Positions 35,227 to 56,977 of a DNA stretch of 64,000 nt are shown one piece after another (within the stretch, counting starts at the first letter, position 1; each line of letters starts with the position of its first letter). A model generated the notes under the pieces. It was given only the letters and a program-made list of their open reading frames with translations. It was not told the origin of the DNA and ran no database searches. The stretch is from Microthyrium microscopicum (taxonomy: Eukaryota > Ascomycota > Dothideomycetes > Microthyriales > Microthyriaceae), in assembly GCA_010405405.1 (NCBI GenBank), contig MU004234.1:1693563-1757562 (forward strand). Direction: 5' to 3'. Made by a program: the position numbers and the translations under genes.

Positions 35227-35566
35227 TATGGAGATGTTCGGAGGGAAAAGACTATGGTGACATGATGTAGAGGGCCAATTGAGCAGTTGTCGGAGCGCGA
35301 CAAGAGAATAAATCTGTCTAGATGAAAAGGGTGAAAGGGATCAGTCACGACATGAAGTTCAAGAAAAAGTTCAGAATGCCAAGGCTCACGAAGCTCTGGC
35401 CAACCACTTCGAGATCTTTGATTCAACTTCATCTCAACGTTCAACTTCATTTTAAATCAACCTTCGATCAACTCCTGCCTACGCGCAAATTCTGGTTGTC
35501 GCCCTTCTCCTGGCCTTGCCTTCATTCGATACCACAAGTACAAATTCAAGCTGTCCTCGAATCATC
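35227..35566. promoter_or_regulatory. Divergent promoter between mL67 and the first 2EXR-like gene
   Basis: This spacer of 340 bases includes 35377-35407, a block that recurs with few changes at 36571-36600 upstream of the second paralogue, so the duplicated unit includes upstream DNA. Confidence 0.5.
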
Positions 35567-36478
35567 ATGGAGTCCGAGAGAGATAGCTTCCCTTTGTTTA
35601 AAGCTCCATACGAGATTCGCAACATGATCTACGAATACGCTCTTCAACTAAGCGTGACTTTCACTTTCTGCCATACACATAAAGGCGATCCGAGGAAGCC
35701 CCATCAGTGGTGGTATGCAGAAGGCAAACCTTATATCGTCGCTTATGAGCTTACTCGGCTCACACCTGCACTCCTTTTGACTAGCAAGCAGATTGCGCAA
35801 GAGACCAGATCAATACTTCATTCCTGTCACAAAGTCATCAAATCCTCTTTTGAAGGTTCTAACATTCGCCTTGACCCGAGTCCGAGTCCTCTATTCCTCT
35901 CTCTTTGCGAATCGGGCCGCTTCGTCATAGACCTTTCAGGCGACTATCCACTCCAAGTTCTTGGAACAAGTCTCCAACCTATTCATTCTGCCGTTCGATC
36001 GGTAGTCCTCTCGCCTCGCTGTGTGTCGGGTGACGACTCGGGCGTTCTTGATCTGTGGGAGAAGGGTGTAGATCTCCAAAGCTGGACACGCTTTGGTCGC
36101 ATACTCTTCCAAATGCCCGCGCTCAAAGAGATTGAAATGCCCTTGTCAAGTAATCCATATTATTGCGAGTGGGCACCTTCCGAAGTTTGTCAAATGCTGG
36201 AGAGCGGAAAGCTTGAAAAGATTCGGTTCTTGTATGCGAAAGGGCAACGGCACGATCGTCACCGTCACGGCCCACCCTACACCACTGATGACCTGGTGCT
36301 GAAGTATTTAGCGATAGGGCAGCGCTTGCAGAATATTCAGACCGGAGTTCCGATCGGGGACTCGATTACAGTGAGGAGAGAAGCCGAGCTTCATGACACG
36401 CTGCACGAAGGCGCCTGGAACGACTGGCCTCGAGTTGACACCATTTTTACTCTGGAACGTCTTGATCAACCAGCATGA
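35567..36478 (+). CDS. 2EXR-like fungal protein, tandem paralogue 1
   Basis: A single exon of 303 residues from the ATG at 35567 (the frame is open upstream without an ATG). The N-terminal motif FKAPYEIRNMIYEYAL is the pattern seen in fungal 2EXR-type, F-box-like proteins, whose function is unknown. Features shared with the next two genes are the HQWW block, LLTSKQIAQETRSILHSCHKVIKSSF, DPSPSPLFLSLCESGRFVID and SVVLSPRC. Unlike paralogues 2 and 3 it ends shortly after the WPRVDTIFTLER block and lacks an acidic tail. The three genes point the same way and are separated by 240 and 826 bp, so local duplication is the simplest explanation. Confidence 0.78.
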   Translation: MESERDSFPLFKAPYEIRNMIYEYALQLSVTFTFCHTHKGDPRKPHQWWYAEGKPYIVAYELTRLTPALLLTSKQIAQETRSILHSCHKVIKSSFEGSNIRLDPSPSPLFLSLCESGRFVIDLSGDYPLQVLGTSLQPIHSAVRSVVLSPRCVSGDDSGVLDLWEKGVDLQSWTRFGRILFQMPALKEIEMPLSSNPYYCEWAPSEVCQMLESGKLEKIRFLYAKGQRHDRHRHGPPYTTDDLVLKYLAIGQRLQNIQTGVPIGDSITVRREAELHDTLHEGAWNDWPRVDTIFTLERLDQPA

Positions 36479-36718
36479 TTGGTACTTTCCTCATCCTTTG
36501 AGGTCACGATACGCGCCAAGGCCGCTGTAGTTGGCTCTCATCATCTCAGAGATCTTAGCCGAAAGTCCGGTGCCAAGGCTCGCGAAGCTCTGACCAACTC
36601 AATGCTGACATCACCTCTCGAATCACATTTATGATTTAGCATCATCAGCTTGCCATTCTCCTACATGTTATCAGTGTCGCCCTTCGGGCAAGCTTCCAGG
36701 TTGTTCTCAAGTATAACT

Positions 36719-37900
36719 ATGGAGCCCGTTCAAACTACCTCTCGTCTGCTCGATCTTCCTCTTGAAATCCGCCTCATTATCTACGAGCTCGTTCTTCTTC
36801 CACGAGTAACCTTCAGCATCCGCGATTACTTTCTACATCGTCGCGGCGAACCTCGTCCTAATCATTTTCCTTACAATTTCCCTGCTGAAGGTCGATGGTG
36901 GAAAAGTAGGAACAATAACCATATGGTCTCATACGAGTTTTCCTTGCCCATTCCTCCCCTACTGACGGCATGCAAACAAATTGCCGGCGAGAGTCAACTA
37001 GTGCTGCGTCACTATCATAAAGTCATCAAATCCTCCTTTGATCACGAAGACTTTATCGCGGACCCTAGTCCTCTTTTCCTCGCTATCTGCGATTCTGCTC
37101 GCTTTGTTATAGACACTACAGGCAACTTTTCAAAGCTCTATTTCGAGAGGTCTTTACAGCCAATTCGCTCCTCTATTCGATCAATCGTTATATCACCTCG
37201 TTGCCTGGCTGTTACTAGTCCTAGTACTCGCCAATTATGGATGAAAAGTCCGGACGAAGAATGGACCCCCTTTTCGCGCATGCTTCTCACCATGTCTGCC
37301 CTCGAGGAGGTAGCGGTCTCGATAGATGCCGGGGTCGGGGGACGTTGTGCTGAGATGGCTGCTATAGAAGTCTGTCAAATGGTCGAGATGGGGAAACTTG
37401 CAAAGGTTCGATATCTGTGCCGGGAAGAACAGGTCAACCGGGATCTGTTTGGCGGATCGACACGTTACTATGTCATGTCTATAATAGGTGAGGCGCAACG
37501 CTTGAGTGCTTTCGATTCACCTGCCAGCATCAAGCATCTCCTCAGAGTGGAAAGAGAAAAGATTCCTGTCGGTCCTCTACACCAACAGTGGATGGACTGG
37601 CCGGAGGGTGACAAAGTCTTTGTCCTAGAGCGCGACGATGGTCAACCCAGAGCAGATCAGTACGTGTATGACTCCGATGATGATTGGGAAGATTCCGAGG
37701 AAGATAGGGGAGAGTCCAGAGAAGACGATGAGGTCGGTTCCGAGGGACACATTGGAGTTCTCGCTAGGGCAGACTCCACTGATGAATCTGGTGAAAACCG
37801 CGAGGATGTCTCTGAATACGATTCCAAGGATGATTCCGAATATTCAGAGCAAGACTCCGAGGTTGACCCCGGGGAGCACGCAGACGATGACGACTATTGA
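36719..37900 (+). CDS. 2EXR-like fungal protein, tandem paralogue 2, with acidic tail
   Basis: A single exon of 393 residues from the ATG at 36719, chosen because MEPVQTT aligns with the starts of the neighbouring paralogues; an upstream in-frame ATG at 36665 would add 18 residues. The core LLDLPLEIRLIIYELVLLPRVTF, LLTACKQIAGESQLVLRHYHKVIKSSF, DPSPLFLAICDSARFVIDTTG and SIVISPRC is shared with paralogue 1. After WPEGDKVFVLER the last ~75 residues are almost all Asp, Glu, Ser and Gly (for example YDSDDDWEDSEEDRGES), a disordered acidic tail. Function is unknown. The family is often annotated only as F-box-like or 2EXR. Confidence 0.78.
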   Translation: MEPVQTTSRLLDLPLEIRLIIYELVLLPRVTFSIRDYFLHRRGEPRPNHFPYNFPAEGRWWKSRNNNHMVSYEFSLPIPPLLTACKQIAGESQLVLRHYHKVIKSSFDHEDFIADPSPLFLAICDSARFVIDTTGNFSKLYFERSLQPIRSSIRSIVISPRCLAVTSPSTRQLWMKSPDEEWTPFSRMLLTMSALEEVAVSIDAGVGGRCAEMAAIEVCQMVEMGKLAKVRYLCREEQVNRDLFGGSTRYYVMSIIGEAQRLSAFDSPASIKHLLRVEREKIPVGPLHQQWMDWPEGDKVFVLERDDGQPRADQYVYDSDDDWEDSEEDRGESREDDEVGSEGHIGVLARADSTDESGENREDVSEYDSKDDSEYSEQDSEVDPGEHADDDDY

Positions 37901-38726
37901 TTACGACTGCATTCATCGTCCAAATAAACAGCGATAGCTCTTTAGCGTAGTAACTCAGGCCCTGACGCGCTTCGAATAAGCCTGGGCGAAGTGAAGTCCC
38001 GTTTTACATGTCACGAGAGACCCAGTTCCATACCCACGACATACCATAGCACTCGATGACCCAGCACATTGATCCACCCCGAGAGCAATACGATATGAAT
38101 TACCAAAGATTTAGCCACACCGAAGTCAGCGGCTTCTAGGTATCATGCAGTATATACGACTGATATCCAGAACAGGAAAGCGTATTCCACTGGAATCAGA
38201 GGACTGGCGAGCACTCACGACCCTCGATGTAACTATAACATGAATTATGTATGGATTGATCGCATGATATTATAATTCCCGGTAATCTAATGCTACCAGT
38301 GCTTATCGCGACTCCTCTCACTTTTCTACCGTAGCTCCAATTATAGCACTGTGTCGTTGTCTTGTTGGTATGTGTGAAACAACGTAAGAGCTGATGATCT
38401 TGATGTTGCTTTGGCCGTTGGAAAAAATAAACGGAACCAGCTCGCGAACCCGCCAATGGATGATGATCTGGCGGCCTAGCCATACCTTGTCATACCCAAC
38501 CACCCAACCTCACCTCTTGAGAAGTCATTCTTTCTGTGCTCACCGCCTACAAAATCGAACACGCGTACTTCAATTCGAACCACCAAAGTCCTGCAAAACG
38601 ATAGACTAACATCGATACCGAAAATTGATAGCAAGTGCCCAATCGGAGGCCGGTCCAAGGGTCCATCAAAATATCTTCCAGCACACTTCGTAGCTTGAGT
38701 ACACCGCAAGTCATTACACTGTCACA
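37901..38726. other. Intergenic region between paralogues 2 and 3
   Basis: Some 826 bases with no convincing gene. Minus-strand frames here are short or antisense to paralogue 3. The AT content is higher than in the flanking genes. Confidence 0.45.
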
Positions 38727-39779
38727 ATGGAAGAGGATACAAGGACTTTCCCGTTTATGAAAATTCCTATCGAGCTCCGCATCATCATTTACGAACTTGC
38801 CCTTTTTCCAAGAGCAACGTTTGCGCTTTTCAGTCCAATGAGTGACGAAAAACATCTTCCAGAAGGACATGATCAATGGTGGTACAGCAAGGGGAAGCGT
38901 AAGGAACACGTATTGTCATATCAGTTTGCCCTTTCGCCATTGCTTCTGGTCTGCAAGCAAATCCACCACGAAACCAAGCCAGTAATGCGGTCTTATCACA
39001 ATACCGTTCAATCCTCTTTCATTCACGAAGACGTTATTGCAGAACCCCACCCCCTATTTATATCCATTTGCGAAAACAGTCGCTTTGTGCTGGACAGCTT
39101 TGGGAAGATCAACAGGAAATTTCTGGAGCAATCATTAGCACCAGTTCACCTTGCGGTTCGATCGATAATCATCAAAAGTCACTGTCTATTCCTCGACGAT
39201 GGACCCACTTCTCTGCTTTGGTCTGGAGATAATGACGCTCACTGGCTCCCTTTTACGCAAAGTTTGATTCGAATGCCTGCTCTTGAAGAGGTGGCTATAT
39301 ACGTACCAAGCGAAGAGGAAGGCGATTGGTATTGCAGTCAGGCCCTTCCAGAACTCAGTGAATTGCTAGAACTAGGAAAGCTTCGGAGGCTTTGGTACTT
39401 GTTCACAGATCCGAATATAGAAGCCGAGAACAGCGATTATCTTGAGAGGGCTTTGAGACCAGAAGTGCCCGAACCCCTAGAGGACTACTGGAAAGCCTGT
39501 GAAGAGTCGGAAAAGTCACCAGATAGATTCAGTTCGACTAGAGATGATCAGTTTGTGGAAGCAATCTGCGATGGATACAAGGATGGCTGGCAAGCACTTC
39601 GCTCTGCTTTTCGTCTTGAGCGTGTAGGAGAGCCGATTGGAGACAAGGCTGTTCTGGAGCTGTCTGACGGTTCGGATTCTGATGATCTAATGGATTGGGA
39701 AGACCAGTTTGAGGAAGAATCTGAAGAAGAATCTGGAGGCTATGACGAGTATGGCAGCGAAGACGAATTTGAAGGTTAG
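38727..39779 (+). CDS. 2EXR-like fungal protein, tandem paralogue 3, with acidic tail
   Basis: A single exon of 350 residues. FMKIPIELRIIIYELALFPRATF, HDQWWYSKGKRKEHVLSYQFAL, LLLVCKQIHHETKPVMRSYHNTVQSSF, PHPLFISICENSRFVLDSFG and SIIIKSHC follow the same order as in paralogues 1 and 2 but are more diverged (HKVIKSSF is here HNTVQSSF). It shares with paralogue 2 a short acidic tail (WEDQFEEESEEESGGYDEYG). Function is unknown; the shared tail suggests that paralogues 2 and 3 are closer in domain layout, or that paralogue 1 has lost the tail. Confidence 0.78.
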   Translation: MEEDTRTFPFMKIPIELRIIIYELALFPRATFALFSPMSDEKHLPEGHDQWWYSKGKRKEHVLSYQFALSPLLLVCKQIHHETKPVMRSYHNTVQSSFIHEDVIAEPHPLFISICENSRFVLDSFGKINRKFLEQSLAPVHLAVRSIIIKSHCLFLDDGPTSLLWSGDNDAHWLPFTQSLIRMPALEEVAIYVPSEEEGDWYCSQALPELSELLELGKLRRLWYLFTDPNIEAENSDYLERALRPEVPEPLEDYWKACEESEKSPDRFSSTRDDQFVEAICDGYKDGWQALRSAFRLERVGEPIGDKAVLELSDGSDSDDLMDWEDQFEEESEEESGGYDEYGSEDEFEG

Positions 39780-40098
39780 TGTTCAGTCTGGCAAGTCTCG
39801 CTTGAGATATATAGAGCGAGCACGGCGAGCGAACGAGAAGCCTTCTCTGAGACTACAGCGTTTTAGTCAATGGAGTTTCTCTCATGGGGAAGCATCAACA
39901 CTTGACAGATATGCCTAGTCGCCCCAGACAGTGACCTCAAATTAGTGCTACATTGACCGCTTCTGAGGACATATGATATAGGTTCTTGTTTGAAACATAA
40001 ACCAACGCGGAAAGACCTGTCAAATGCGATAAGTCAGCGAGCGATCCAAATCACATATCGGTATTTGCTTCAATGCTAAGTGTTCATTTTGTATGATT
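39780..40098. other. Convergent intergenic region
   Basis: This spacer of 319 bases lies between paralogue 3 and the end of the CR-type gene; nothing else is seen. Confidence 0.4.
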
Positions 40099-43000
40099 TC
40101 AGTTACGGCTGTTCTCTTTTAACTTCATCGCCTGCAGCAGAGTATTGTAATGTTGTCCAAATAGCTTCTCCGTACTTTTCTTGTCGATACAAGTAAAGTA
40201 GAACGGAAACTCGTACTCGGGGTCTTTTCCTTGATTCTCAGTTTTCAAAGCATCATCCGCCTTAGGGATATTTTCTTTTCCTCTGATCAATTGAGCGATT
40301 CTTTCTAATTCTAGTTTTCCCCCAGACGACTTCCGCACAGCCATATAGCGCAGGCCAAGCTGAATTCTCTCTGTACTGGCCAAGAACTTTTCAGTATCGG
40401 TCGCAGGGGTCAGCAAGACGGTGAGTATGAGCAAGTTCTTTCCTTTCTTCAACTGTTCTTTCTTCAACTGTCGAAGTTTGTCCCAAAAAGCTTTTTGCTT
40501 CACATTTGCACCATTGAACCATTGATTAGGATCTAGGGTGCGAATCACTCCCAGCACTTCAGCATTGCTAATCTTGTTCGCACTTGTTTTGAGCTTGTGG
40601 GTCATTAGTAGATCTCTGTGCTGGATCATGGATTTGAACCTCACCTGTATAGCGCAAAGTATAGAAGTTGTACCGTTCTCGAGCATGAAAACGACGTCCG
40701 GCCCAGCAAAGTTGGAAGGGAAACAAAACTTAGGACAAGGCTTGTCCTCGAACACATTTGTTATCCACTCCGTCAAGTCTAGTTTCTGATCAAATTGCAA
40801 ACTCGGATTTGGCCACGGAGGATTGTAGAGTCTGAAGTTATTTAGAGATCCGATGCAGATGCTCTTACTGCTAGGCTCGATCCACTGAGCTTCCTCAAGC
40901 AATCCTGTTATCGAAAGATTGCTCTCTTGGTTTATTGAACGCTTAATACACTGCAGTGGTTAGTGAAGAATTCGTGCTACAGAGAGTGTCACATACGGAT
41001 GCCAGGTACCACTCTGAAGCTTTTCCAAAGGCAGACGCATCATTTTGATTAAGGCTGAGCAAAGACTTCAAAACCTTGTTTCCTGCGTTCTCAGATGACT
41101 CTATATGCTCGATCACGGCGTCTACAGCAAGCTGCTCAGAGAGTATCTGTCTGACCTCTGTGGCATCTAGCTTTTCTACGTGTGCAAAGCCTTCTGTGAT
41201 AAGTTGTCCGGATTTTGTATCTTGTGCTATCCAGCTCCGGTGCATGAGATCGGCTTGTACAGCAGTCCAGTACAGATCGTCGAGGGCTTCCTGATAATCG
41301 AGGTCCTTTTCCAGCACGCACAGCCGCTCCTTGAGTCTTTTTTTCACCAGCTTTTGCACTTTGAATGATTCCTCGCGAATATCTTCCTCCCTTAATGGGC
41401 TGTTTGGATCCTGGAGAAACAGTGCAAACAAGTATTCAATGTACAAAGTGGACCAGCGGATGCGACCTCGAAAAGCGCGGGCTTGTCGAAACACTGTCTT
41501 TTCATGCGGTTTGATGCTTTGGATAAAGATCTCGACCATTTCTGTGATTGCCTGTTTCATGGCATTTTGCATGCTCGATGCGTCAGACGAAACAACCACT
41601 TCGTACCGTGGCTGGAGCCACCCTTTGACTCTCTCATAGCAATCGTCTTTAGTAGCTGTCACTCTCTCATAGCAATCGTCCTTAGTAACTGTCGCAGTAC
41701 CAAAAGAGAACACGCTCCGAAGAGCATGGTATGTTTTTTCAAGCAAGAATGGTTCCCCTCGTAAGGCCCTGATAGTGCTTCGATCTTCAGGCTGCAATTG
41801 TCCCACTTGTAATTCTGCTAGTACGAGATGACCAATACGAGCGATGAGTCGGCGAACGTGTGCCTTCATTAGAGAATCAAATACTTTCTCGGACGCTATG
41901 AGATGCATTTGCGAAGTGGTAACCGTATCTCTTCCGCGAAGGTGCTTATTAAGTCTGAAGGCTTTCTTACACTCGTTCAAAGAGAGGGATGTTCCAGTCA
42001 CCCGAACTCCAACATCCTTCGTAGGCTCCACGACAGTATTCCATTTGTCATTAGATACTAGCTGAATGACAGTCTCCTCAAGTAGCGATGACGGCGTGTT
42101 ATCAAACGATAAATGGGGAACATTTAGGTCACATTGCGCTTCATCAATGTGAATGTCAAACCTAAGTTCGTTCGACATCAAAAGGTCGTCGGAGGTCGTA
42201 AGCAAAAACCGAACTTTTAGCAGTCTGTAGAAGGGATCTAGGCCCGCAACGCACGAGGTCTGGAACAATAGCCATAGTCGTCGCGAATCAAGCTCTACGG
42301 TTTTCCCCATTCCAGCCGATTTGCGAATCTAAGAGATGTGGCTCTCGAAAACCCGAAAGATCTCGACGCGGTTTCGTATTAGGCGTGCGGCCGCGTCATC
42401 CAGTCCATATCCGGTTCGGAAATCCAAACGTCGTACTATCTGGGAGAAAAGTCTGGTATCTTCAGAGGCTCCTTCGCGCCGCGGAAGAAAAGGATCTTGA
42501 AGCGGATCGACGCTCGAATCAGTACTTCCAGCCACGAAGTAAAAACCCCATTTTTTGGCGATGCAATCAAAAACGACTTGTGTCTTTCCAGATCCGCTGA
42601 CTGAGAACATAATGTCCCAATCGCTGTCGACATTGACGGTGTTCAAATCTTCCATCGATGATTGTAAGAACGAACAGTCCGGTAAGCCCTTCTCTATGCC
42701 TGGACAAAGTAGACGGAACCAGAGGTCTACTTCATTTCTTACTTGAGTTCTATAGACGTCTTTTAAGAAGACTTCCATTCCACGAAGAAAAGGCGAGTGT
42801 TCATGGGCCCTCGCATTCGCATTCCCCCAAGTGAACGCTGGTTCTGATGCATTTCGTTCCAGATCAGGGATGCAAAATTCCTTTTTCAATGGTTGCGCCG
42901 GTAGGAAGCCTTGTTAGAGTCAGCCTAGGTAGGACCTGAAAAACGGAGACTGACCACCTGCAGTTGTCATAGCTTGAGACCGAGCACTGTACACTTTCTG

Positions 43001-43570
43001 GAGTAACGCCATTGTAGCAGAGCGGGTTCGAATGAAATTGACATCACGGCTGCTTGTATCTATGCTGAAGTTCCCCTCCTTCCACCTGTCGTATAGAAGA
43101 TCGTGATAGCCGTCGTTGTTTTCATTGTCAAGCTCCTGGGTCCATTGCCACATAGTAGCGAAGAGTTCCATATCGTGCCCGTAAACGTCCCAAATGATTG
43201 TCTCGAGGTCTGGGAAAAGCCATCGTCCAGAACGAGGTTGGCGCGTACGGGTGCTAGATCGGATACGAATGTCGCAGTAGAGTTGATTGCTGAGTATCAA
43301 GTTCAAGATCCTATCTACGCAAGGCGGTCAGTAACAGCATAATTGTACTAGAGATACTTTGACAGCAGTTCACGAAGCTAAAGGAATCGAGACGTGCTTG
43401 CTCATCGACATCAACTTACCATCAGTTGGTAGGCTCGAACACTGAGATCCACGCTTCATTGACTCCGGAAAATTATGTATGCACCATCTCCAGCAAAACC
43501 ATAATCGATATCTGTTAGTACCCAGTGGATACAAGTCGCGATATTCATCGAATGTCAGGATATCCGCCAT
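40099..43570 (-). CDS. Crinkler/RHS-type (CR) P-loop NTPase with C-terminal nuclease-like domain, interrupted by one in-frame TAG
   Basis: Exons are placed at 43570-43420, 43314-42955, 42909-40997 and 40950-40099. Exon 1 may be incompletely modelled. After a helical header comes a P-loop NTPase: Walker A VSGSGKT, KKWGFYF, the WLLFQ motif, Walker B-type IDEAQ, and VTGTSLSL. These elements, in this order, are those of CR (Crinkler and trypanosome RHS-like) effectors. A long helical region follows. The last exon has AGPDVVFMLENG...CAIQVRFKS, spaced like the Asp ... Q-x-K core of PD-(D/E)XK nucleases found at CR C-termini. A single TAG at 42331-42329 breaks the frame inside the NTPase, just before WLLFQ; frame is kept on both sides. 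It is either a disabling mutation or part of an unrecognised short intron. A 33-bp in-frame duplication lies at 41628-41693. The role is inferred from family only; no N-terminal signal peptide is visible. Confidence 0.65.
41628..41693. repeat. 33-bp tandem duplication inside the CR-type gene
   Basis: Two adjacent copies of a 33-bp unit differ at only two positions (CGTCTTTAGTAGC versus CGTCCTTAGTAAC). The unit length is a multiple of three and the product carries two copies of an 11-residue unit containing TKDDCYERV. The near identity suggests a recent event. Confidence 0.9.
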
Positions 43571-44658
43571 GATCTCCGAGGTTTGTAGGCATGGATAGTT
43601 GGGCACAAGATAGCATTATAAGGTTTGAGGCCTATCTTCCTAAATGTCTCTTTTCTCTTCCATTTGAGACTGCAGATTGGCTGCTATGTTTAGATCAGGC
43701 TGCATGATTCTACCTGGAGGTGGTCCACCTTTCGCCTTGTGATTTTGTGCTAGACTTGCCTGTTCCATCCTTGACTCGCTGAAGAAGTTAGCATCATGGT
43801 AACTAGTATCACATGCTCGTGAATACCTTTAAGTTGGGAGATACTTCCAATGGCCAAAGCATTTGCTGGGGTACAGATTGCGAACTGCCCCAGTGCTTCA
43901 CAGTAACCAGTGCTTCACAGCAACCAGTGCTTCACAGTAACCAGTGCTTCACAGTAACCAGTGCTTCACAGCAACCAGTATTATTGCTACAAATCCGAAT
44001 ACTTATAACTGGCATCAATTTGCAGACACTAGTCAATGCAAGCAAATCGGAAGGAGACTGGCTGATACGGTTCAGCTTGTTGATCGATAAGAACTCATTT
44101 TTGTTTCAATAGCGACCTACCGGCATATCTTAGGAAAGTCCATCAGCAATCATGCATAGATGACACGGAATCAAACCCATACATGTGCTCATCCTATCAT
44201 GAAATTCAAGATCCACTAAGAAGATGTTCAAAAGGACTCCGTCGTTGCACTTCTTGATTACCGATATTTCAATGAATCTGATATGTATTCTTTAAGATGA
44301 GCTAGAGCTCCCTAAGTCATCTAATAAGAGCTCTTCTTCATCTTCGTTCGAATCCGAGTAATAGTCCATTCTGATATCCTCATAGACATCCATGAGACAT
44401 CGAGGTCCAGTTGTCACTCTATTTGTTCAGCCTGTTGATGGTACAGAACAGCGTTTGATTAATGCGATCGGTCAAGGCATAAGGTGTGCACTATGTGGAG
44501 CTACCACTTGCTGGACTTCATAGGTTCATACTTCCAAATCCCGCCAGGTGCTCATTTACGGACCTGTAGAGACGGAAGGAAAGGTGCAGATGATTTTGAA
44601 GAGAGAAGTTTATAAATTTAGTTTACCCTATGTAAAATTACAATTTGGGTTTAGATAG
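43571..44658. other. Intergenic region with minisatellite
   Basis: About 1.1 kb between the start of the CR-type gene and the 3' end of katG. It contains the 17-bp minisatellite listed separately. A plus-strand frame of 99 codons at 43813-44112 is created by the repeat and was not called. Confidence 0.5.
43891..43980 (+). repeat. 17-bp minisatellite, five copies
   Basis: The unit CAGTGCTTCACAGTAAC is repeated five times head to tail, with one variable position (AGTAAC versus AGCAAC in copies 2 and 5), followed by a partial CAGTA. It begins about 320 bp upstream of the CR-type start codon. Confidence 0.97.
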
Positions 44659-46998
<2,340 letters not shown>

Positions 46999-47354
46999 TT
47001 AGATTTTAAACCGTGGCGAATAACAAACCCCACATTCGTCAGACTAGGATTAGGCAAGACCTGGTGCAGTTCAAGGACGGAGTTGCCCCGCAGTGCATGT
47101 GTGAGGTGCATGTTCTGGCTTGTTCTGGCTCAAATTGGTTGTTGATGCTCCTTCCTTGGCTGCGGCAGTTCCGTCAAACGCCGCATCCCGACCGAGAGAG
47201 CTCTTTCAACCGCGATTATATCTCTAGCGTCGAAACGCCTCTCGCCCGATCCATCCCACGCTAGCCCATTGACCAATCACGCCTATGGTTTTGCTGTAAT
47301 GACCACAGCATCAAAGAAGTTTATATTTTCTACAACCTCTTTCGTCTCTAGATA

Positions 47355-48381
47355 CCTCTGGTGTGCATTCTGAGCTTCAGGGGCCAGCTTTTGGACTTTA
47401 TTTTCTAAACTTAATTTCAGCCAATCAAACATCTGGCTGAGAGAAGTTCACGTGACGGCTACACGCAACAGTTGAAAAGCCCTGGCCCCGCTAGCTATTT
47501 AGTTATCTCAGAGACCCAGACTAATTGGATCGCATAGACGACCCTAATTAGGTAAGTATTATCAATAACCACCACCTCCCAAACCGCGATCCAACAGTCT
47601 AGGATCAGATCGCGGAATTTATGTGAGCAAACGCTTAGAAGGGTTCTTGGTTTTGGCTTCATTTGGGTTTATCTCATCAACAAAGCGTCTTTTCAGAAAT
47701 CTGAATATCTAGCAAAATACTTTAACAACCTGGCTTTTCAGCCATAGTAACTTTATTTCTATTACTCTACAGGCCATAGCTACATAAATTACCAAAAACA
47801 AGGCCAAAAACCTGCCAAACGCTTAGGAATTCACGATTTACCGACCCCCTAAAACTCTACGACGGCTAAAATTTTGATATTTTTTCCGCGCCTATAGTTA
47901 TTTGCCTTAATCTGAAAAATCCAAAACAAATACCAGAAAACTCAAATTTGGAAAGGTAGTAAAGTTATATTAGTTCAAAGAATTATTAATTTTCGCAAAG
48001 TTGACTATATAAAATCAAAACATAAACTTCAGGCCAAGATTCCTTACTTAATAAAGGGCTAATAAATAAGCCGTAAATAGATATAAGAAGCCAAGTTTAA
48101 GAGCTTTAAGTGCACCTCAATTTCGGAGAATAACAAGTTGTTGTTAATAAAGTATTGATGAGTTGAAGTTGTTATGTTTCAAAGCGTTTCTACTAACAAA
48201 AGGCGCGATGTGGTCTCAGACGGTAAAACAAGGATCCCCTTCATCACGTGCCGTGATAAAGGGATCCGTTTTACCTATCTGAGCTTCTGAGATAACTATT
48301 TAGCCAATTAGCACACAAGCTGGAAGGCTCAAAATCAAAATCAGAAAGTCTGACCCTGAAGCTCAGAATGCACACCAGAGG
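47355..48381. mobile_element. Non-autonomous DNA transposon (MITE-like), TA-flanked, 28-bp perfect TIRs
   Basis: The left end 47355-47382 (starting CCTCTGGTGTGCATTC) is the exact reverse complement of the right end 48354-48381. Each end is flanked by TA (47353-47354 and 48382-48383), as expected for the TA target duplication of Tc1/mariner-type elements. The 1,027-bp interior is AT-rich and has no coding frame. Inside the ends a second pair of related inverted segments (about 47491-47516 and 48276-48306, sharing AGTTATCTCAGA) and a large hairpin near 48214-48284 are seen. No transposase is present in the window, so it would depend on one elsewhere. Confidence 0.85.
48214..48284. repeat. Imperfect palindrome inside the TIR element
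   Basis: The left arm (TCTCAGACGGTAAAAC, then GGATCCCCTTCATCACG) and right arm (CGTGATAAAGGGATCC, then GTTTTACCTATCTGAGA-like) are nearly complementary around a centre at about 48248. The stem would be about 30 bp with a few bulges. Confidence 0.8.
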
Positions 48382-48983
48382 TACTTTGTTTTACTTCATC
48401 ATGAACGCGCCAGTATCAATGCTTTTTTCGTTGTCGGTTCTATCCGACCGACTGGTGGCAAGTAGGGCAAATCAGCAACCATTGAATCATGTCCTTGTCA
48501 TCATCTCACTCTCTGCTTGGACGATCAACCATTCTTAATTGCCGATTCATGTTGCCCAGGAAACATGTGAACTTAATGGGATCGTATGTCATTGTTGAAC
48601 AATTTATTGACTGGACTGCCATATAGGTCGACTGGTGTCTTCATACGCGCTGAATCAGAATATTCCTGTCGAACAAAAAGCATACATCAAGTCATACAAA
48701 CGACATATCTGAGCGTATTGGGTTGAACGCCTTCTTGGCCGCATGGCCTCACCAATACTATTGTATGTTTAGGATATAATTCCCTCTACTGCTTGTGGAA
48801 ATGTTATCACAGCTCAGGCAAGTACATAATTTGAAAAACAAGGCTTAATTTCTAGCTGTCAATATCAACACCTAAGCATGGGTAATTGACCTAGTATCTT
48901 CTTGAGAACCAGATATAAAAGAGATAAATGAGCAGATTAGGACAATCCACCTGTAGTAGGCATCAATCATATTCTCTTAATGT

Positions 48984-50018
48984 TTATCTAGGATCAACGA
49001 CCAACTTCACACCACTAACTCCCTTCTCCAGCTTATCCAGCGCAACCTGTACGCCCTTCAAACCACCCCCAATCTTCTCAATTGGCGGAGTAATCAGCTT
49101 GCCCTTCGCGAGCGCTTGCTCAAGATACTCATGAAAACTCCACGACATGAGCCCAGCATTCCTCTCTTCATGCAAGATAGCAGGCCAGGACATACTCTCA
49201 TAAGTTAATCCCTCCGGAATCTTGTCCTCGGCGCTCACCGCAACACCAAACAGCGTTCCACCGCCCTGCGCATCCAACACCTTCTTATTAACCAAAATCG
49301 TATCTTCCAGCGATATCGTATCCACAACCGCAACATACGGACCCCTCTCAATCAACGCTTTCGCCGTCTCCTCATCGCCCAGCGTATGGTCAACCACCGC
49401 CGTAGCACCTAATCCCGACACCCATCCCATATTCCGCGGACTACTCGTCGTGACAACCTCATAGCCCGCCTGAGCAACATACTGCACACTCAAACTCCCC
49501 AAACTCGACGACCCACCATAAACCAACACCTTCTCCCCCTTCCCCACCACCCCTTTCTCAAAATCCGGTTTCCCCAACCCCAACCTTCCCTCAAAGATGC
49601 CCACCACCGTCGTCAGATTCCCCGTCAACGCCGCGCCAGTAGCAATATCCACAGCGTCCGGAACTTTTGCCGCCGTCTCTTCACCGACTACCACAAATTT
49701 CTGGTATCCGCCATACTGGTTTCCCTGCTTGGGCGGAAAGTACATTGACGCAGCGACACGGTCGCCAACTTGAAAGCGCGTGACGCTGGATCCGATGGAG
49801 GTTACTGTGCCGCCGAAAGAGAAACCGCTGATGACTGGGTAGTTCAAGGGGAAGATGCCAAGTTTAGCGATTTTCCATTCCGCGGGATTCAGGGCGATGG
49901 CTTCGTTGCGGATGAGCAGTTCCTTGGGGCCTGGGGTATAGGTTTCTACGAGAATTATTTCAAGGGGGGCTTTTGCGGCGGGGATGATTATGGCTTCGTT
50001 GGGCGTGGTGGATGTCAT
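48984..50018 (-). CDS. Medium-chain dehydrogenase/reductase (zinc-independent, enoyl-reductase/quinone-reductase-like)
   Basis: A single exon of 344 residues. The N-terminal GroES-like domain shows the MDR pattern (NEAIALNPAEWKIAKLG, PVISGFSFGGTVTSIGSSVTRFQVGDRVAA). The Rossmann part has the NAD(P)-binding VLVYGGSSSLGSLSVQYVAQAGYEVVTTSS and ends LDKLEKGVSGVKLVVDPR, where GVSGVKLVV-type tails are typical. The structural and catalytic zinc ligands of alcohol dehydrogenases are missing, which places it with the fungal ToxD/enoyl-reductase-like group. The substrate is unknown. No biosynthetic cluster partner is nearby, so a secondary-metabolite role is not supported by context. Confidence 0.9.
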   Translation of the reverse strand: MTSTTPNEAIIIPAAKAPLEIILVETYTPGPKELLIRNEAIALNPAEWKIAKLGIFPLNYPVISGFSFGGTVTSIGSSVTRFQVGDRVAASMYFPPKQGNQYGGYQKFVVVGEETAAKVPDAVDIATGAALTGNLTTVVGIFEGRLGLGKPDFEKGVVGKGEKVLVYGGSSSLGSLSVQYVAQAGYEVVTTSSPRNMGWVSGLGATAVVDHTLGDEETAKALIERGPYVAVVDTISLEDTILVNKKVLDAQGGGTLFGVAVSAEDKIPEGLTYESMSWPAILHEERNAGLMSWSFHEYLEQALAKGKLITPPIEKIGGGLKGVQVALDKLEKGVSGVKLVVDPR

Positions 50019-50781
50019 CTTTGTGGTGGATTGGTTGGGGATTGTGATTTTGAGTATTGGATGGGTTTAGAGGGGAGTTGTTGGTTAGGTTCAGTTGTTT
50101 GCAGGATGTATGTAGTACTAGTAGCTGGAGCTGTGGAAGTTGATTGTTTGGTGAGAATATATGGAATTGAAGATATAAGCACTACTATAACACAACAGTA
50201 AGCATGTGGATAGCCAAGTTCGCAGGGAATGCAATATTAAGTTATGCCGACGGGGTAAAGATCTAGCCGCAGTGCTTTAAGTAGCAGTATGCTCTTGATC
50301 AACTTCAAGAATATTAGAACAACTCCAAGTATTTTCGGGTCCAGTTTGGGTAAACGAAAGGCTGGTCGTCGTCTCGCTTACAAACGGAGATCGATTGGAA
50401 ATGGAGATAAATGGAGATTGGGACGGAGGTAGTAAAAGGATCGTTATGGTGTGGAATTTTGACATTTGAAAGGTATTATTACCGCGACGCAACTTCCCGA
50501 TCTTTTTGGTATATTGACCCTAACCGTAGGATGCTTTCATTGTTGGCTGTTTCAAATATATTAACAAGCAATCCCTTGATGAGATACCAAGGGTACTAGG
50601 ACGACAGCCTCAAGTCTCGCCATTCTTTTACACGAATAATTTTGGTCTCTTTCAGTCACCAGGTATATAAATATTGACTCAAGTGTTTATTTCGTCCTAC
50701 AATCTAATCTTCAACTCCAAGCTATCCCCTGTGCCAAGTGTGGGCTTTTCGACACTCCGCTTGTGAACCACAGAACAGAAC
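50019..50781. promoter_or_regulatory. Divergent promoter region
   Basis: About 760 bp lies between the divergent starts of the MDR and DUF7136-like genes. A TATA-like element lies at 50664-50673, listed separately. Confidence 0.45.
50664..50673 (+). promoter_or_regulatory. TATA-box-like element of the secreted-protein gene
   Basis: TATATAAATA lies 109 bp upstream of the ATG at 50782, a fitting distance for a fungal core promoter followed by a short leader. Confidence 0.5.
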
Positions 50782-51576
50782 ATGATTCTGAGGAGCAAAC
50801 TCGTCTTCCTCGCCGTTAGCAGCTTGTCGATTCAGTCGTGCTTTGCGGCCAATCCTGTGGTAGTCCAGACAGACATTGTCTTTCCGAGGAACAACACCGT
50901 CTACAAAGCCGTACCTTCATTCCCCATCGTTTTCGCACTCACCAACTTTGCGGATGTTTGGCAATACCAACCAATTGTAGCCTGGCGGCTGCAAATATTG
51001 CAGCCAAATGGCAACAACATATTGGGTGAGCGAGGTGTAGTTGGATGGACGGACAAAACATCACATCAAATAGCTCCAGGACCACAGCTCGCTGTCAATT
51101 CCGCCTCTTCAATAAAGTCAAAAGGATCAGCAATGTACGAACTTCAATATGACTTCAGGATTGCTCCCACATTAGATGACTGTTATTATACCCGACTGTC
51201 TCCTGACTCGTTCTTTCAAGGTTCAATCTTCTTCAACATCAGTGATGAGACAGGCATTTCTCCCGATATTGTGGGCCCTGATGGATGCAGCTCACCATTA
51301 GGAGCAGTCGGATACACTGGGCCGAATGCAACAAAGTCACAATGTCCTGCTGTGACATCGCCGCGTCCGGATCCAGTTGCTTGCGCGTATAGGCTAAATT
51401 CCACATCATCCAGTCAGATTGCGGAAGCTATTAAAGATACGTCTGGTTGCAAAGCTATTAAATACGCCAGTTCTGATGTAAAATGTCCTAATGCAGTTTC
51501 TCACGGTCTAAGGCTCCAGCCCAGCAGCTTTGTTTCTTTTATAACTATGTTTGGTCTAATTCTTCCTCTCATCTGA
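50782..51576 (+). CDS. Secreted, probably GPI-anchored DUF7136-like protein
   Basis: A single exon of 264 residues. The N-terminal MILRSKLVFLAVSSLSIQSCFA is a signal peptide with likely cleavage after CFA. The mature start NPVVVQTDIVFPRNNTVYKAVPSFPIVFALTNF and a beta-rich body with paired Cys (DDCYYTRL, PDGCSSPLG, KSQCPAV, DPVACAYRL, SGCKAIKY, VKCPNAV) match the fungal DUF7136 family as I know it. Several Asn-X-Ser/Thr sites are present. The C-terminus is hydrophobic (SFVSFITMFGLILPLI) after a small-residue region, the pattern of a GPI-anchor signal. The family's function is unknown; a cell-wall or surface role is inferred. Confidence 0.8.
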   Translation: MILRSKLVFLAVSSLSIQSCFAANPVVVQTDIVFPRNNTVYKAVPSFPIVFALTNFADVWQYQPIVAWRLQILQPNGNNILGERGVVGWTDKTSHQIAPGPQLAVNSASSIKSKGSAMYELQYDFRIAPTLDDCYYTRLSPDSFFQGSIFFNISDETGISPDIVGPDGCSSPLGAVGYTGPNATKSQCPAVTSPRPDPVACAYRLNSTSSSQIAEAIKDTSGCKAIKYASSDVKCPNAVSHGLRLQPSSFVSFITMFGLILPLI

Positions 51577-53530: not shown

Positions 53531-54559
53531 AAGGCTGAGAGAAAGGCTACGCTAAGAATGATGAGGGGTAATTGGTGGGGCCCAAACGGATCAGTCCCAG
53601 ACGTCACCCCAAATAAATGATTTCGGTGACTCTTTTTCGTTTGTTTGTCTTGAAACTGAAAGATATGGGAATTGAGGGTTTATCTCAAAACAAATGAAAG
53701 AGAGGGGCTTTAAGCAAAGGATTCTAGGCGACAGCTTACGGCCAGCAGCGATCAACAGACGACATCATCAAAGGCTGCCGATCCTTTCTGCATTCAGAGC
53801 GTTGGCCAGCATCACTATCGCCAACATTGATTCGCCAATTCCTCTGTAAAATTCTGAACAGTACACTTGAGTGCTATCAATTGTCAAGAATCTGATACTC
53901 TAGTTTCACGCTATACGCACAAAGCTTCTCGATCAACCATCAGTCCTTGGACACAAAGTGATGACCCGACCTTCTCAATCAGGAGCTGAGGCAAGAGCTG
54001 GAATATCCTATTTGGTGATTGAGAACCAGGGAATACGACAGCCCTATGGCCTTACCTTGGCGATGCTCGAAGATCTAACATGTTGTACCGTGGGTCGTAA
54101 TCGAAAAGCAGTTCAAGGCAACACAACTCTGCCATATATAATTATATCGACAGAAGCTGATGAGGGGTAGAATGATTTGATGGATGATCAAGGCATTAAA
54201 TGATTGATCTCGAGCTTGAGGATCACCATTATTGGCTTGACTAGCTACATCTTTGCTGCACCGCAATAGAGACCTTCCGAGCTGCCCAGCGAGTAAGATT
54301 CATCTTCACTCTTGACCGGTCCTGGCTTTGAAGATGTTTTGCTGCGCCTCGTGCCATCCACTTCATGCGGTGGGATGAAATAATGAGGCAACAAGCCTCA
54401 GCCTTGCTTACTTTTCAAAAACTGCATCAGCACTTTACAGCCTGAAAAGGCCAAAAGATTTGGATTACCTCTTGTATAAAATGCGGTGTCTTTCGTCGCT
54501 TCCATCTGAGAAACTGTACAGAGCTACCGTTCGTACCCGCAAGCCAATTCACTGTCAAC
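53531..54559. promoter_or_regulatory. Divergent intergenic region between the beta-helix protein and the HET gene
   Basis: About 1.03 kb between two divergent starts holds both promoters. A 70-codon plus frame at 53958 has no recognisable features. No repeat or operator was identified. Confidence 0.45.
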
Positions 54560-56977
54560 ATGGTACGCTTCACGGAAACAGATTCATTATGTTCGAGATG
54601 TAGCGGAATAGACTTTGAGAGGATCATCTTTGAATCTACGGCATCGCAGAGCCTTGGATCCTGGGAAAGCGTTCGAAGGCGTGCATATTGCTCATTCTGT
54701 CGCCTGGTCACTGCCGCTCTTGATGATTACCCAGATTTGGAGCCAGGCACTCGACTCATGCTCAGCAATGTCCTCGCATGGCATGAATCAATTATGACCC
54801 TATTCTATGATGGACAAAGATCTGAGGATTATTCGAATAGATTCGACCTGAAGGACAAAGCAGCAGACATATCTGGTCGGCCCGCCCAAAGTCTGGTTGT
54901 CTCTCGAGGTCGCCAGCGACTAGTAGAATTGCATTATGTCGCCTCTCATGAATCGGGAGACAGGAAACTGTTTTTTGGTCGAAGAGTCGACCAAAAACAG
55001 GTGAATTGGCCACTGCTTAAATCCTGGTTGCCTGAATGTGAAAGGTTCCACAATGGTCTATGCGACAGGCGAGGGAAGGCTGCACAAGATCTCCCAAAGA
55101 ACTTGAGAGTGATTGACATCGTCGAAGGCAAGATAGTCACAGCTCCCCCTCGCTGTCAGTATTGTGCAATGACTTATGTCTGGGGACCCATTCGCAGAGA
55201 AGGCACCCTTCTCAAGCAAAGCTGGCTCAAGAGAGATCACAAGGGCCGTGAATACGCGGATTTGCCTTCAGTGTTACCTCGAACGATCGCCGATTCTATG
55301 ATCGTCGCAGGCGCGCTGGGATTTCGATATCTCTGGAATGATTCCTTGTGCATCGTTCAGGGCCCAGAAGATGCTCCTCAGCACAAAAATAGCCAGATTT
55401 GGAGAATGGATGCAATATACAGCTCTGCAGCTCTCACCATCGCAGCAGCTACCGGCAGTAATGCAGATTCAGGTCTTCCAGGAGTCAGTCTTCCAAGGAG
55501 GATCAAACAGATATCGGAAGTGGTTGATGGCATTCGATTTGCTGTGCCATTTCCCAATTACGATATCATTCATGACGACCGAAGTCTGATATGGAACACC
55601 CGAGGATGGACAATGCAAGAAAAGCTGCTTTCTAAGAGACTGCTACTCTTTACCGATGAACAGGTCTACTTTAAGTGCTCAAACGCGATTTGGTCCGAGG
55701 ATACTGCATTAGAGATAGGAGCAATCTCAAGAGACAAACGGCGGCGACCCGACCCTTTTCGATGGGTATCAGATCGCACAATACCCAAGACACCAAACAT
55801 GTTAGACCAGTTCATTTACAAATTTCGATCTGGAAATCTTTCTGATGTTGACTTGGAGTTAGAATTCCTCCCAAACTACATGTCTTTGATACAGGAGTAC
55901 ACACGTCGCACGCTCAGTAACTCTTCGGATGCGGTCAAAGCCATACAAGGTATTTTGAACACGCTTGATGCAGACGAGTACTCCGGCATTCCGCGTAAAT
56001 ATCTTCCATCTGCTTTACTATGGCAGCCGAAGCCTGGCAGCAAGGCCACCATTATACCTCCCTCAGGCACTTCTGCTCCATCATGGTCGTGGGCAGCTTG
56101 GAATTTACCAAAAGGCTGCACTTGGTACGAACGAGACTACAGATCAACAACCTGTGATGTAACACTGACGGATCCTGCTCCGAAGCCGCGAAAGCCATTT
56201 GACTTTTCTACAATGTATGTATTTGAACGGCAGGCAGAGGAAAGGGGTCCTTCAACTGTGATAAAACACAAATCTTATGGGCCCAAGGAAGAAAATCTTC
56301 CGCATCCAAACTGGCCTCCATTTCTGGCTCGTCATCTAAATCAGGTTGATCACATTTTCTGTTTTCATACACTATTCTTTCGATTCTCCATCGGTGACAG
56401 ATTGAAGCAATATTCTCCCGGTGCCAGGAATATTGATTGTGTTGAACTGTTCGAAATCACTGATGCCCTGGACAATACTGTCGGCGAAATATGGATCTCA
56501 GGAAACGAAGCTTTTCGTGATGGTAAACAGCCTAAAGATTTTATACTTCTGTCATTCGGCACCGGATTCGAACGAGCTACACTGCCCCAGCTCTATGTCC
56601 CACAACGAACTGAATATGTGCAGGATGATACACATGTCAACTACACTCAGCCAGATAGAAGCGGACTAAACTTTTCGCACAATACCGGCAAGAGCTCTGA
56701 AGACATGTTCGCCAACAACCTTCTTGCTCCTTCAAATCTAAACTTAAGGCCCTTGTCAGCTTCAGGAGTTTCTCAGACACCCTCGACTTTGACTTCATCT
56801 CAGTCACCACCAAAAAGACCTGTACAGGTCAATATTCCACCAAGCCAATGGATAGTGGGAAATATGATGCTGGTGGAACGCAGCGAAGGAGTTGCAAGAC
56901 GCGTGGCTTTGGGGAAGGTGATCAAGAGCGCACTTGAGAAGAGTAAATGGAAAGATTCTTGGGTACACTTAGCATAG
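54560..56977 (+). CDS. HET (heterokaryon incompatibility) domain protein
   Basis: A single exon of 805 residues. The N-terminus contains Cys pairs (CSRC, YCSFCRL). The HET domain spans about residues 205-375: YCAMTYVWGP, LPRTIADSMIVAGALGFRYLWNDSLCIVQ, WRMDAIYSSAALTIAAATGSNADSGLPGV, and later WNTRGWTMQEKLLSKRLLLFTDEQVYFKC. This order is diagnostic of the fungal HET domain, which triggers programmed cell death on non-self recognition in known incompatibility systems. The C-terminal part is typical of the common 'HET-only' class, with a Ser/Pro-rich stretch before a helical end; no NACHT, STAND or repeat domain is attached. Whether this gene acts in incompatibility cannot be told from sequence, since such genes are numerous in ascomycetes. 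Confidence 0.93.
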   Translation: MVRFTETDSLCSRCSGIDFERIIFESTASQSLGSWESVRRRAYCSFCRLVTAALDDYPDLEPGTRLMLSNVLAWHESIMTLFYDGQRSEDYSNRFDLKDKAADISGRPAQSLVVSRGRQRLVELHYVASHESGDRKLFFGRRVDQKQVNWPLLKSWLPECERFHNGLCDRRGKAAQDLPKNLRVIDIVEGKIVTAPPRCQYCAMTYVWGPIRREGTLLKQSWLKRDHKGREYADLPSVLPRTIADSMIVAGALGFRYLWNDSLCIVQGPEDAPQHKNSQIWRMDAIYSSAALTIAAATGSNADSGLPGVSLPRRIKQISEVVDGIRFAVPFPNYDIIHDDRSLIWNTRGWTMQEKLLSKRLLLFTDEQVYFKCSNAIWSEDTALEIGAISRDKRRRPDPFRWVSDRTIPKTPNMLDQFIYKFRSGNLSDVDLELEFLPNYMSLIQEYTRRTLSNSSDAVKAIQGILNTLDADEYSGIPRKYLPSALLWQPKPGSKATIIPPSGTSAPSWSWAAWNLPKGCTWYERDYRSTTCDVTLTDPAPKPRKPFDFSTMYVFERQAEERGPSTVIKHKSYGPKEENLPHPNWPPFLARHLNQVDHIFCFHTLFFRFSIGDRLKQYSPGARNIDCVELFEITDALDNTVGEIWISGNEAFRDGKQPKDFILLSFGTGFERATLPQLYVPQRTEYVQDDTHVNYTQPDRSGLNFSHNTGKSSEDMFANNLLAPSNLNLRPLSASGVSQTPSTLTSSQSPPKRPVQVNIPPSQWIVGNMMLVERSEGVARRVALGKVIKSALEKSKWKDSWVHLA

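What the first reader, a model, noticed from the sequence alone, without database searches (positions are those of the whole stretch)
40099..43570. CR (Crinkler/RHS-like) NTPase-nuclease gene in an ascomycete accessory region
Seen: Walker A VSGSGKT, KKWGFYF, WLLFQ, IDEAQ and VTGTSLSL in the order of the CR-class P-loop NTPase, followed by a C-terminal segment with a GPD ... Q-x-K pattern like a PD-(D/E)XK nuclease. Known: CR proteins are a eukaryotic effector class thought to descend from transposon- or conflict-related NTPase-nuclease pairs, best known from oomycetes, trypanosomes and some fungi. Inference: this is a diverged member, next to tandem paralogues, a minisatellite and a DNA transposon. 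No recognisable LxLFLAK-like header or signal peptide is present, so a secreted role is not supported; an intracellular or selfish role is as likely.
Basis: partly seen in the sequence, partly recalled or inferred. Interest (0 to 1): 0.8.

Follow-up and report, generated by a model that had tools for sequence, protein, structure and literature searches.

The report
Interrupted fungal Crinkler-type (CR) gene
A fungal gene of the Crinkler/RHS class, an energy-driven switch joined to a DNA-cutting-type domain, whose reading frame is broken by one stop codon and whose predicted cutting site is altered, so it is most likely a recently disabled copy of a known kind of gene.

Summary
On the minus strand (43570 to 40099) lies a gene of four exons in consistent frame. 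A profile of six fungal CR-type proteins (window and nearest relative left out) matches 3 of 411 window ORFs, exactly the three central ORFs of the finding, collinearly (E 4.8e-9, 3.4e-5, 6.8e-6; next 0.6). One of the six carries the Pfam Crinkler header. P0001, the nearest relative found, hits only this place in the 36.9-Mb genome (E 6.7e-18, 2.3e-7). CR-class membership is supported by sequence.

Corrections. None of nine in-frame GT-AG introns removing it has both a good donor and a branch site, so the copy is probably recently disabled. (2) The nuclease motif is GPD...Q-V-R, not Q-x-K; six of six relatives reaching this part have Q-x-K. (3) The 'tandem paralogues' are 2EXR-like genes, and the 'DNA transposon' is probably a repeat 3.8 kb away beyond katG. 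Neither the NTPase fold nor a PD-(D/E)XK fold was confirmed (models at pLDDT 41-42). New member of a known kind; probably a young pseudogene.

The parts
43420..43570 (-). exon 1 (ATG at 43570; 50 codons plus one base); no recognised header domain
   Evidence: Donor GTAAGT, frame joins exon 2; no Pfam match
43315..43419 (-). intron 1, 105 nt, GTAAGT...CTGAC...GCGTAG
42958..43314 (-). exon 2 (118 full codons plus three split-codon bases); no recognised domain
   Evidence: open frame; only two Pfam hits far below cut-off
42910..42957 (-). intron 2, 48 nt (or 45 nt from a donor at 42954), branch-like CTGAC/CTAAC, non-canonical AAG acceptor
   Evidence: weakest of the three introns
   Evidence: profile matches on both sides of the TAG; BLASTP to P0001 E 2.9e-9 before and 3.4e-20, 7.0e-5 after it
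42581..42601 (-). Walker A, VSGSGKT (followed by Q where 7 of 7 relatives have R)
42536..42556 (-). CR signature KKWGFYF (W and Y invariant in 7 of 7 relatives)
42329..42331 (-). in-frame TAG stop codon
42260..42274 (-). WLLFQ (W and Q invariant in 7 of 7 relatives)
42134..42148 (-). Walker B-like IDEAQ (D invariant in 7 of 7 relatives)
41978..42001 (-). VTGTSLSL, sensor-like strand
41628..41693 (-). 33-bp tandem duplication inside the coding sequence, a multiple of three
41078..41386 (-). region equivalent to the winged-helix-like part of P0001 (residues about 446-545; approximate borders)
   Evidence: BLASTP 35% over 168 aa; P0001 model
41009..41029 (-). FGKASEW; the G stands where P0002-P0007 have E; P0001 has FGKAAEW
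40951..40996 (-). intron 3, 46 nt, GTATGT...CTAAC...CTGCAG; the alignment with P0001 ends here and the P0001 record ends 13 residues later
40099..40950 (-). exon 4: C-terminal REase-like segment and stop
   Evidence: its ORF matches profile positions 726-809, E 6.8e-6
40639..40704 (-). GPD...Q-V-R, aligned to GPD...Q-x-K of relatives

Best explanation
This is an ascomycete gene of the CR (Crinkler-RHS) class, the only copy found in its genome: a P-loop NTPase, then a probable winged helix, then a REase-like C-terminal segment. It has no recognisable header or secretion signal. In this genome it is most likely a recently disabled copy, because one in-frame TAG cuts the NTPase between the Walker A half and the Walker B half, and the lysine of the nuclease motif is an arginine. 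Proposed working of the intact ancestor (inference from the family as described in PMC5289972): the NTPase acts as a switch that controls the C-terminal nuclease or its grip on DNA, with the winged helix as the DNA-contacting or autoinhibiting part, acting on invading or rival DNA inside the cell that makes it. Shown here: family membership by sequence profile, domain order, the stop, and the Q-x-R motif. Inferred: DNA as target, the switch, loss of function, and its recency.
For: A profile of P0002-P0007 matches only the three ORFs of this gene among 411 in the window, collinearly at profile positions 211-239, 325-442 with 577-665, and 726-809. P0002-P0004 were found with the window's NTPase stretch as query, so the NTPase part of this test is partly circular; the C-terminal ORF (6.8e-6) and the late part of the 461-codon ORF (12.9 bits) were in no search query and are independent. 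The window's two Pif1 helicase ORFs, which have a P-loop, are not among the matches. P0001 against the whole genome gives only this locus (6.7e-18 and 2.3e-7). Of 40 columns invariant among the relatives, 30 are kept (no control was run for this count). P0002 carries the Pfam Crinkler header at 7.6e-16 and the same NTPase-REase body. The stop: the spacing R..W is 32 counting the stop against 22 to 56 in seven relatives; none of nine in-frame introns has both a good donor and a branch site; the one that ends at the TAG with a plausible length (39 nt) would also remove two phenylalanines that are invariant in seven of seven relatives. Recency: one stop and no frameshift in 1,087 codons means neutral divergence since loss of about 2% or less (P of at most one stop is 0.20 at 2%, 0.005 at 5%).
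Against: The rest of the frame, the splice sites and Walker A and B are intact, which is also what a working gene with an unrecognised intron or read-through would show. No RNA data. The reads were not available, so an error at the TAG is open. Q-x-R need not be inactive: a lysine follows two residues on (QVRFK). Neither the NTPase nor the REase fold was confirmed: both models are poor and Foldseek gave no match below E 1. The profile match of the NTPase middle is weak without P0001 (2.4 bits). No database hit with the window itself as query reached E 1e-3. P0006 as a single query did not find this locus, or any other, in the genome.
Confidence: 0.68

Rival explanations
1. The gene is working: the TAG is removed by a short non-canonical intron (for example 39 nt ending at TTAG) or is read through, and the product is an intracellular CR protein.
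For: A CTTAG acceptor does sit at the TAG, and a 39-nt in-frame candidate exists; everything else is open; the gene's other introns include short ones of 46 and 48 nt.
Against: The 39-nt candidate scores 0 of 4 at the donor, has no branch site, would remove two phenylalanines invariant in seven of seven relatives, and would bring the R..W spacing to 19, below the 22 to 56 of the relatives (spacings; the 19 is arithmetic). Read-through has no support.
Confidence: 0.16
2. The TAG is an assembly error or a private allele of this isolate; the species carries a working gene.
For: Only one disabling change in 1,087 codons.
Against: No direct evidence either way: the assembly is contiguous (36.9 Mb in 20 contigs), but base accuracy is unknown and reads were not available.
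Confidence: 0.1
3. A generic STAND/AAA P-loop protein, not CR; the C-terminus resembles REases by chance.
For: P0001 has sub-threshold AAA_16, ATPase_2 and nSTAND6 hits; a winged helix after an NTPase also occurs in Orc/Cdc6 and NLR proteins (titles, domain knowledge recalled).
Against: The C-terminal ORF matches the CR profile on its own (6.8e-6) at the right place, and the W-G-F-Y-F and W-L-x-x-Q signatures are shared.
Confidence: 0.04
4. A secreted Crinkler effector.
For: A CR relative with the Crinkler header exists (P0002).
Against: No Crinkler header in this gene, none detected in the whole genome (controls silent, so weak); no hydrophobic start by eye; broken frame.
Confidence: 0.02

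Closest known systems
CR (Crinkler-RHS-type) proteins with NTPase + HTH + REase C-termini (Zhang et al. 2016, known to me through section 11 and the Figure 1 legend of PMC5289972)
   Same: P-loop NTPase followed by a probable winged helix and a GPD...Q-x-(K/R) segment, in that order
   Different: No recognisable header; K to R in the catalytic motif; frame broken by TAG
Hypothetical proteins of Agaricomycetes, P0003-P0007 (Sanghuangporus, Exidia, Lyophyllum, Tricholomella, Auricularia)
   Same: Same order of NTPase and REase-like segment
   Different: G-x-G-K-T-R and Q-x-K intact; E (F-E, W-E or L-E) where the window and P0001 have F-G
P0001 (584 aa, ENA, organism not named)
   Same: Nearest relative found: 35% over 168 aa, 26% over 177 aa, 28% over 174 aa; shared FGKA-x-EW motif; its record ends near the window's intron 3
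   Different: No stop inside; nothing of the C-terminal exon is in the record, so its catalytic motif is unknown
P0002, Acaulospora colombiana, with Pfam PF20147 Crinkler header
   Same: NTPase and GPD...QVK body
   Different: Has the ubiquitin-like Crinkler header

Membership tests
CR (Crinkler-RHS) class | CR-type P-loop NTPase (Walker A followed by W-G-F-Y-F, W-L-x-x-Q, D-E-x-Q), sequence level | tested here: met
   partly circular, see Best explanation; fold not confirmed
CR (Crinkler-RHS) class | REase-superfamily C-terminal segment after the NTPase, sequence level | tested here: met
   C-terminal ORF matches profile positions 726-809 of the relatives, E 6.8e-6; that these segments are REases rests on the class description, not on a test here
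CR (Crinkler-RHS) class | Catalytic D...(D/E/Q)-x-K | tested here: not met
   D and Q kept, K is R in the aligned column; 6 of 6 relatives that reach this part have K
CR (Crinkler-RHS) class | PD-(D/E)XK fold of the C-terminus | tested here: inconclusive
   mean pLDDT 41.7; helix 62-70 and strands 89-95, 98-108 lie in blocks of mean pLDDT 54-69; no credible PDB match
CR (Crinkler-RHS) class | HTH between NTPase and REase (common architecture) | tested here: inconclusive
CR (Crinkler-RHS) class | N-terminal header (ubiquitin-like or other) | tested here: inconclusive
   No PF20147 in exons 1-2; other header types have no profile here
CRN secreted effector | LFLAK/Crinkler header for delivery | tested here: not met
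   whole genome also silent (controls silent too)
Working protein-coding gene | Uninterrupted frame | tested here: not met
   TAG at 42329-42331, no convincing intron; transcript not testable here
RHS protein (PF07999) | RHSP Pfam profile | tested here: inconclusive
   No match in the pieces or genome (controls silent)

The most novel reading that the evidence does not exclude
This gene and P0001 represent a CR subfamily with a rearranged active site (F-G-K-A-x-E-W where the others have x-E; in this gene also Q-x-R with a lysine two residues on) and no secretion header, used inside the cell as an NTP-gated guard against invading or rival DNA, with a stop codon that is spliced out or read through.
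Probability: 0.08. Interest if true: 0.65.

Novelty: new member of a known kind. Interest (0 to 1): 0.3.

Why it matters
CR proteins are best studied as oomycete effectors, yet the class also occurs in free-living eukaryotes (PMC5289972), where its role is open. A headerless, freshly interrupted copy in an ascomycete is a small data point for the birth and loss of these genes outside oomycetes. The uninterrupted relative P0001 hints that the subfamily is alive elsewhere. For this fungus the gene probably does nothing now.

Tried and rejected
Tandem paralogues: the three genes at 35456-39779 are 2EXR-like, unrelated. Mobile element: the 4,871-bp stretch 39780-44650 has one other match in the genome, of its part 44087-44334 (73% to C5:396387-396649), outside the gene. 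No inverted repeat of 30 nt or more flanks the gene; the only flanking pair of 14 nt or more in 39700-44700 is one of 14 nt at 86%. RIP: indices ordinary. Codon use as a sign of foreign origin: not usable; my exon 2 frame was wrong (4 stops shown) and the Pif1 entry was partly out of frame (13 stops). One search repeats the stop-gain fraction with the right frames (4.6% against 4.5%); one search used the older figure and an assumed indel rate that I do not use. In one search, and in notebook entry 1, the TAG was misplaced by 3 bases; searches are right. Viral contigs: 1 and 65 stretches matched patterns, none a relative by tblastn. Genome contigs was never scanned (searches failed). Protein searches: the whole 656-residue stretch found nothing at 1e-3 among 7,996 scored; the narrower region gave four at E up to 10 among 4,675, best 7.6e-3; the profile search listed four among 7,997 scored, three of them new and one a seed, the other three seeds not being listed. 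PF07999 and PF20147 gave nothing in the genome, with silent controls, so no conclusion. P0006 gave nothing in the genome, not even this locus, so further diverged CR genes there cannot be excluded. NCBIfam and PADLOC: only weak matches (for the window pieces Csx23 5.9e-4, dGTPase 0.016, cg0963 0.13; for P0001 Cas11e 2.5e-3 and others), taken as chance. PDB by sequence: nothing or E 0.56. Fold search of the C-terminus: not usable at this confidence; REases were not listed, which excludes nothing. Papers: one search found none; I saw the rows shown (20 of 3,266, 20 of 31, 12 of 12, 12 of 91, 5 of 5, 15 of 899). No title or abstract start there is about CR genes of ascomycetes, but listed ascomycete papers that hold the word Crinkler (for example PMC3538342) were not opened, so I claim no absence in print. 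Zhang et al. 2016 is not held.

Full report
Gene model. The gene runs on the minus strand from an ATG at 43570 to a stop at 40099-40101. Exon 1 (43570-43420) joins exon 2 (43314-42958) across a 105-nt intron with GTAAGT, CTGAC and GCGTAG. Exon 2 joins exon 3 (42909-40997) across a 48-nt intron with a weaker donor and an AAG acceptor (a 45-nt alternative shares the acceptor). Exon 3 joins exon 4 (40950-40099) across a 46-nt intron with GTATGT, CTAAC and CTGCAG. Lengths sum to 3,273 bases, 1,091 codons, in one frame. The introns are predictions; there is no transcript.

The stop. I listed every GT...AG stretch of 20-150 nt that would remove the TAG: 19 in all, 9 of them in frame. Their donors score 0 to 2 of 4, and only two have a branch-like site, both with donors of 0 or 1 (one search gave the same list). 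The 39-nt one that ends at the TAG would also take out VEIFRVFESHIS, in which two phenylalanines are invariant in the seven relatives. Counting the stop as one residue, the distance between the conserved R before it and the conserved W after it is 32; in P0001-P0007 it is 22, 27, 27, 23, 30, 29 and 56. No extra stretch that looks like an intron is visible. The simplest reading is a true premature stop. With 4.6% of single substitutions making a stop, and one stop and no frameshift in 1,087 codons, the loss of constraint is unlikely to be old: at 5% neutral divergence seven stops are expected and the chance of at most one is 0.005; at 2% it is 0.20.

Family. The first search with the 656-residue stretch (X at the TAG) found nothing. 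Restricting it to residues 92-345 gave four proteins at E up to 10 among 4,675 candidates: P0001 (7.6e-3, ENA, unnamed), P0002 (Acaulospora colombiana, with the Crinkler header PF20147), P0003 (Sanghuangporus weigelae) and P0004 (Exidia glandulosa). None reached 1e-3, so this list alone proves little. Their alignment as a query gave three more (P0005 Lyophyllum, P0006 Tricholomella, P0007 Auricularia). I then built a profile of P0002-P0007, without the window and without P0001, and searched the window's 411 ORFs of 60 aa or more. Three matched: 42332-42913 (4.8e-9), 40102-40959 (6.8e-6) and 40946-42328 (3.4e-5); the fourth had E 0.6. Of 600 shuffles the best had E 1.0 (0.39 in the earlier set). 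With P0001 added the 461-codon ORF reaches 3.3e-12 against 0.56 for the best shuffle. Because P0002-P0004 were found with the window's NTPase as query, the NTPase matches are partly circular. The C-terminal ORF and the late part of the 461-codon ORF were in no query, so their matches are independent. BLASTP of the pieces to P0001 gives 2.9e-9, 3.4e-20 and 7.0e-5; exons 1, 2 and 4 give nothing of note. P0001 against the 36.9-Mb genome finds only this locus; P0006 finds nothing there.

Motifs. Of 40 columns in which all relatives present (six or seven) agree, 30 are kept in the pieces; of the ten others, three have no aligned window residue and seven differ. Telling changes are R to Q directly after SGSGKT and K to R in Q-x-K; six of six relatives that reach this part have Q-x-K. 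Before the REase segment, P0002-P0007 have an E (F-E, W-E or L-E) where the window and P0001 have F-G and then an E four residues on (FGKA-x-EW), so that change belongs to the subfamily and not to decay. PD-(D/E)XK labels for these motifs are recalled knowledge plus the class description in PMC5289972; they were not shown by structure.

Context. Downstream of the gene, on the plus strand at 35456-39779, lie three 2EXR-like genes. Upstream lie a 17-bp minisatellite, a stretch of about 250 bp with one diverged copy elsewhere in the genome, and katG (44659-46998; named by my reading of the translation, no family search). Beyond katG is a repeat with 52-bp inverted ends with another repeat nested in it; no ORF of 95 aa or more lies in 46990-49000. 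Nothing found ties the CR gene to a mobile element.

Literature. PMC5289972: section 11 read in full and passages. PMC6131194: passages, saying that CRNs occur in several fungi and, after Zhang et al., in free-living eukaryotes. PMC9815663: passages, reporting the Crinkler domain at N-termini of fungal NLR proteins. PMC3914424: one passage, not informative here. Zhang et al. 2016: not held, known through the others.

Verdict. By sequence a member of the CR class, in an ascomycete, probably recently disabled. That the organism is an ascomycete rests on the HET and 2EXR genes and recalled knowledge of their distribution.

Noticed in passing
47353-48383: Element with 52-bp inverted ends (83% complementary); related copies of its outer parts on contigs C1, C6 and C15, and copies of inner parts on C12, C8, C4 and C14. 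It looks like a short MITE with a second repeat nested in it; the inner repeat is bordered by CTATTTAG on both sides, an 8-bp duplication as hAT-type elements make (hAT label recalled).
   Followed up: partly
44087-44334: Stretch between the CR gene and katG with one other copy found in the genome, 73% identical, at C5:396387-396649.
   Followed up: no
54446-56977: Long open frame with a HET (heterokaryon incompatibility) domain, E 1.2e-24.
   Followed up: no
35456-39779: Three tandem 2EXR-like genes on the plus strand, the last two ending in acidic low-complexity sequence.
   Followed up: partly
40102-40959: Weak match of the C-terminal piece to PADLOC Csx23 (5.9e-4, 52 residues), taken as chance.
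   Followed up: no
50767-51576: DUF7136 protein, E 1.8e-22, with a hydrophobic start by eye, perhaps secreted.
   Followed up: no
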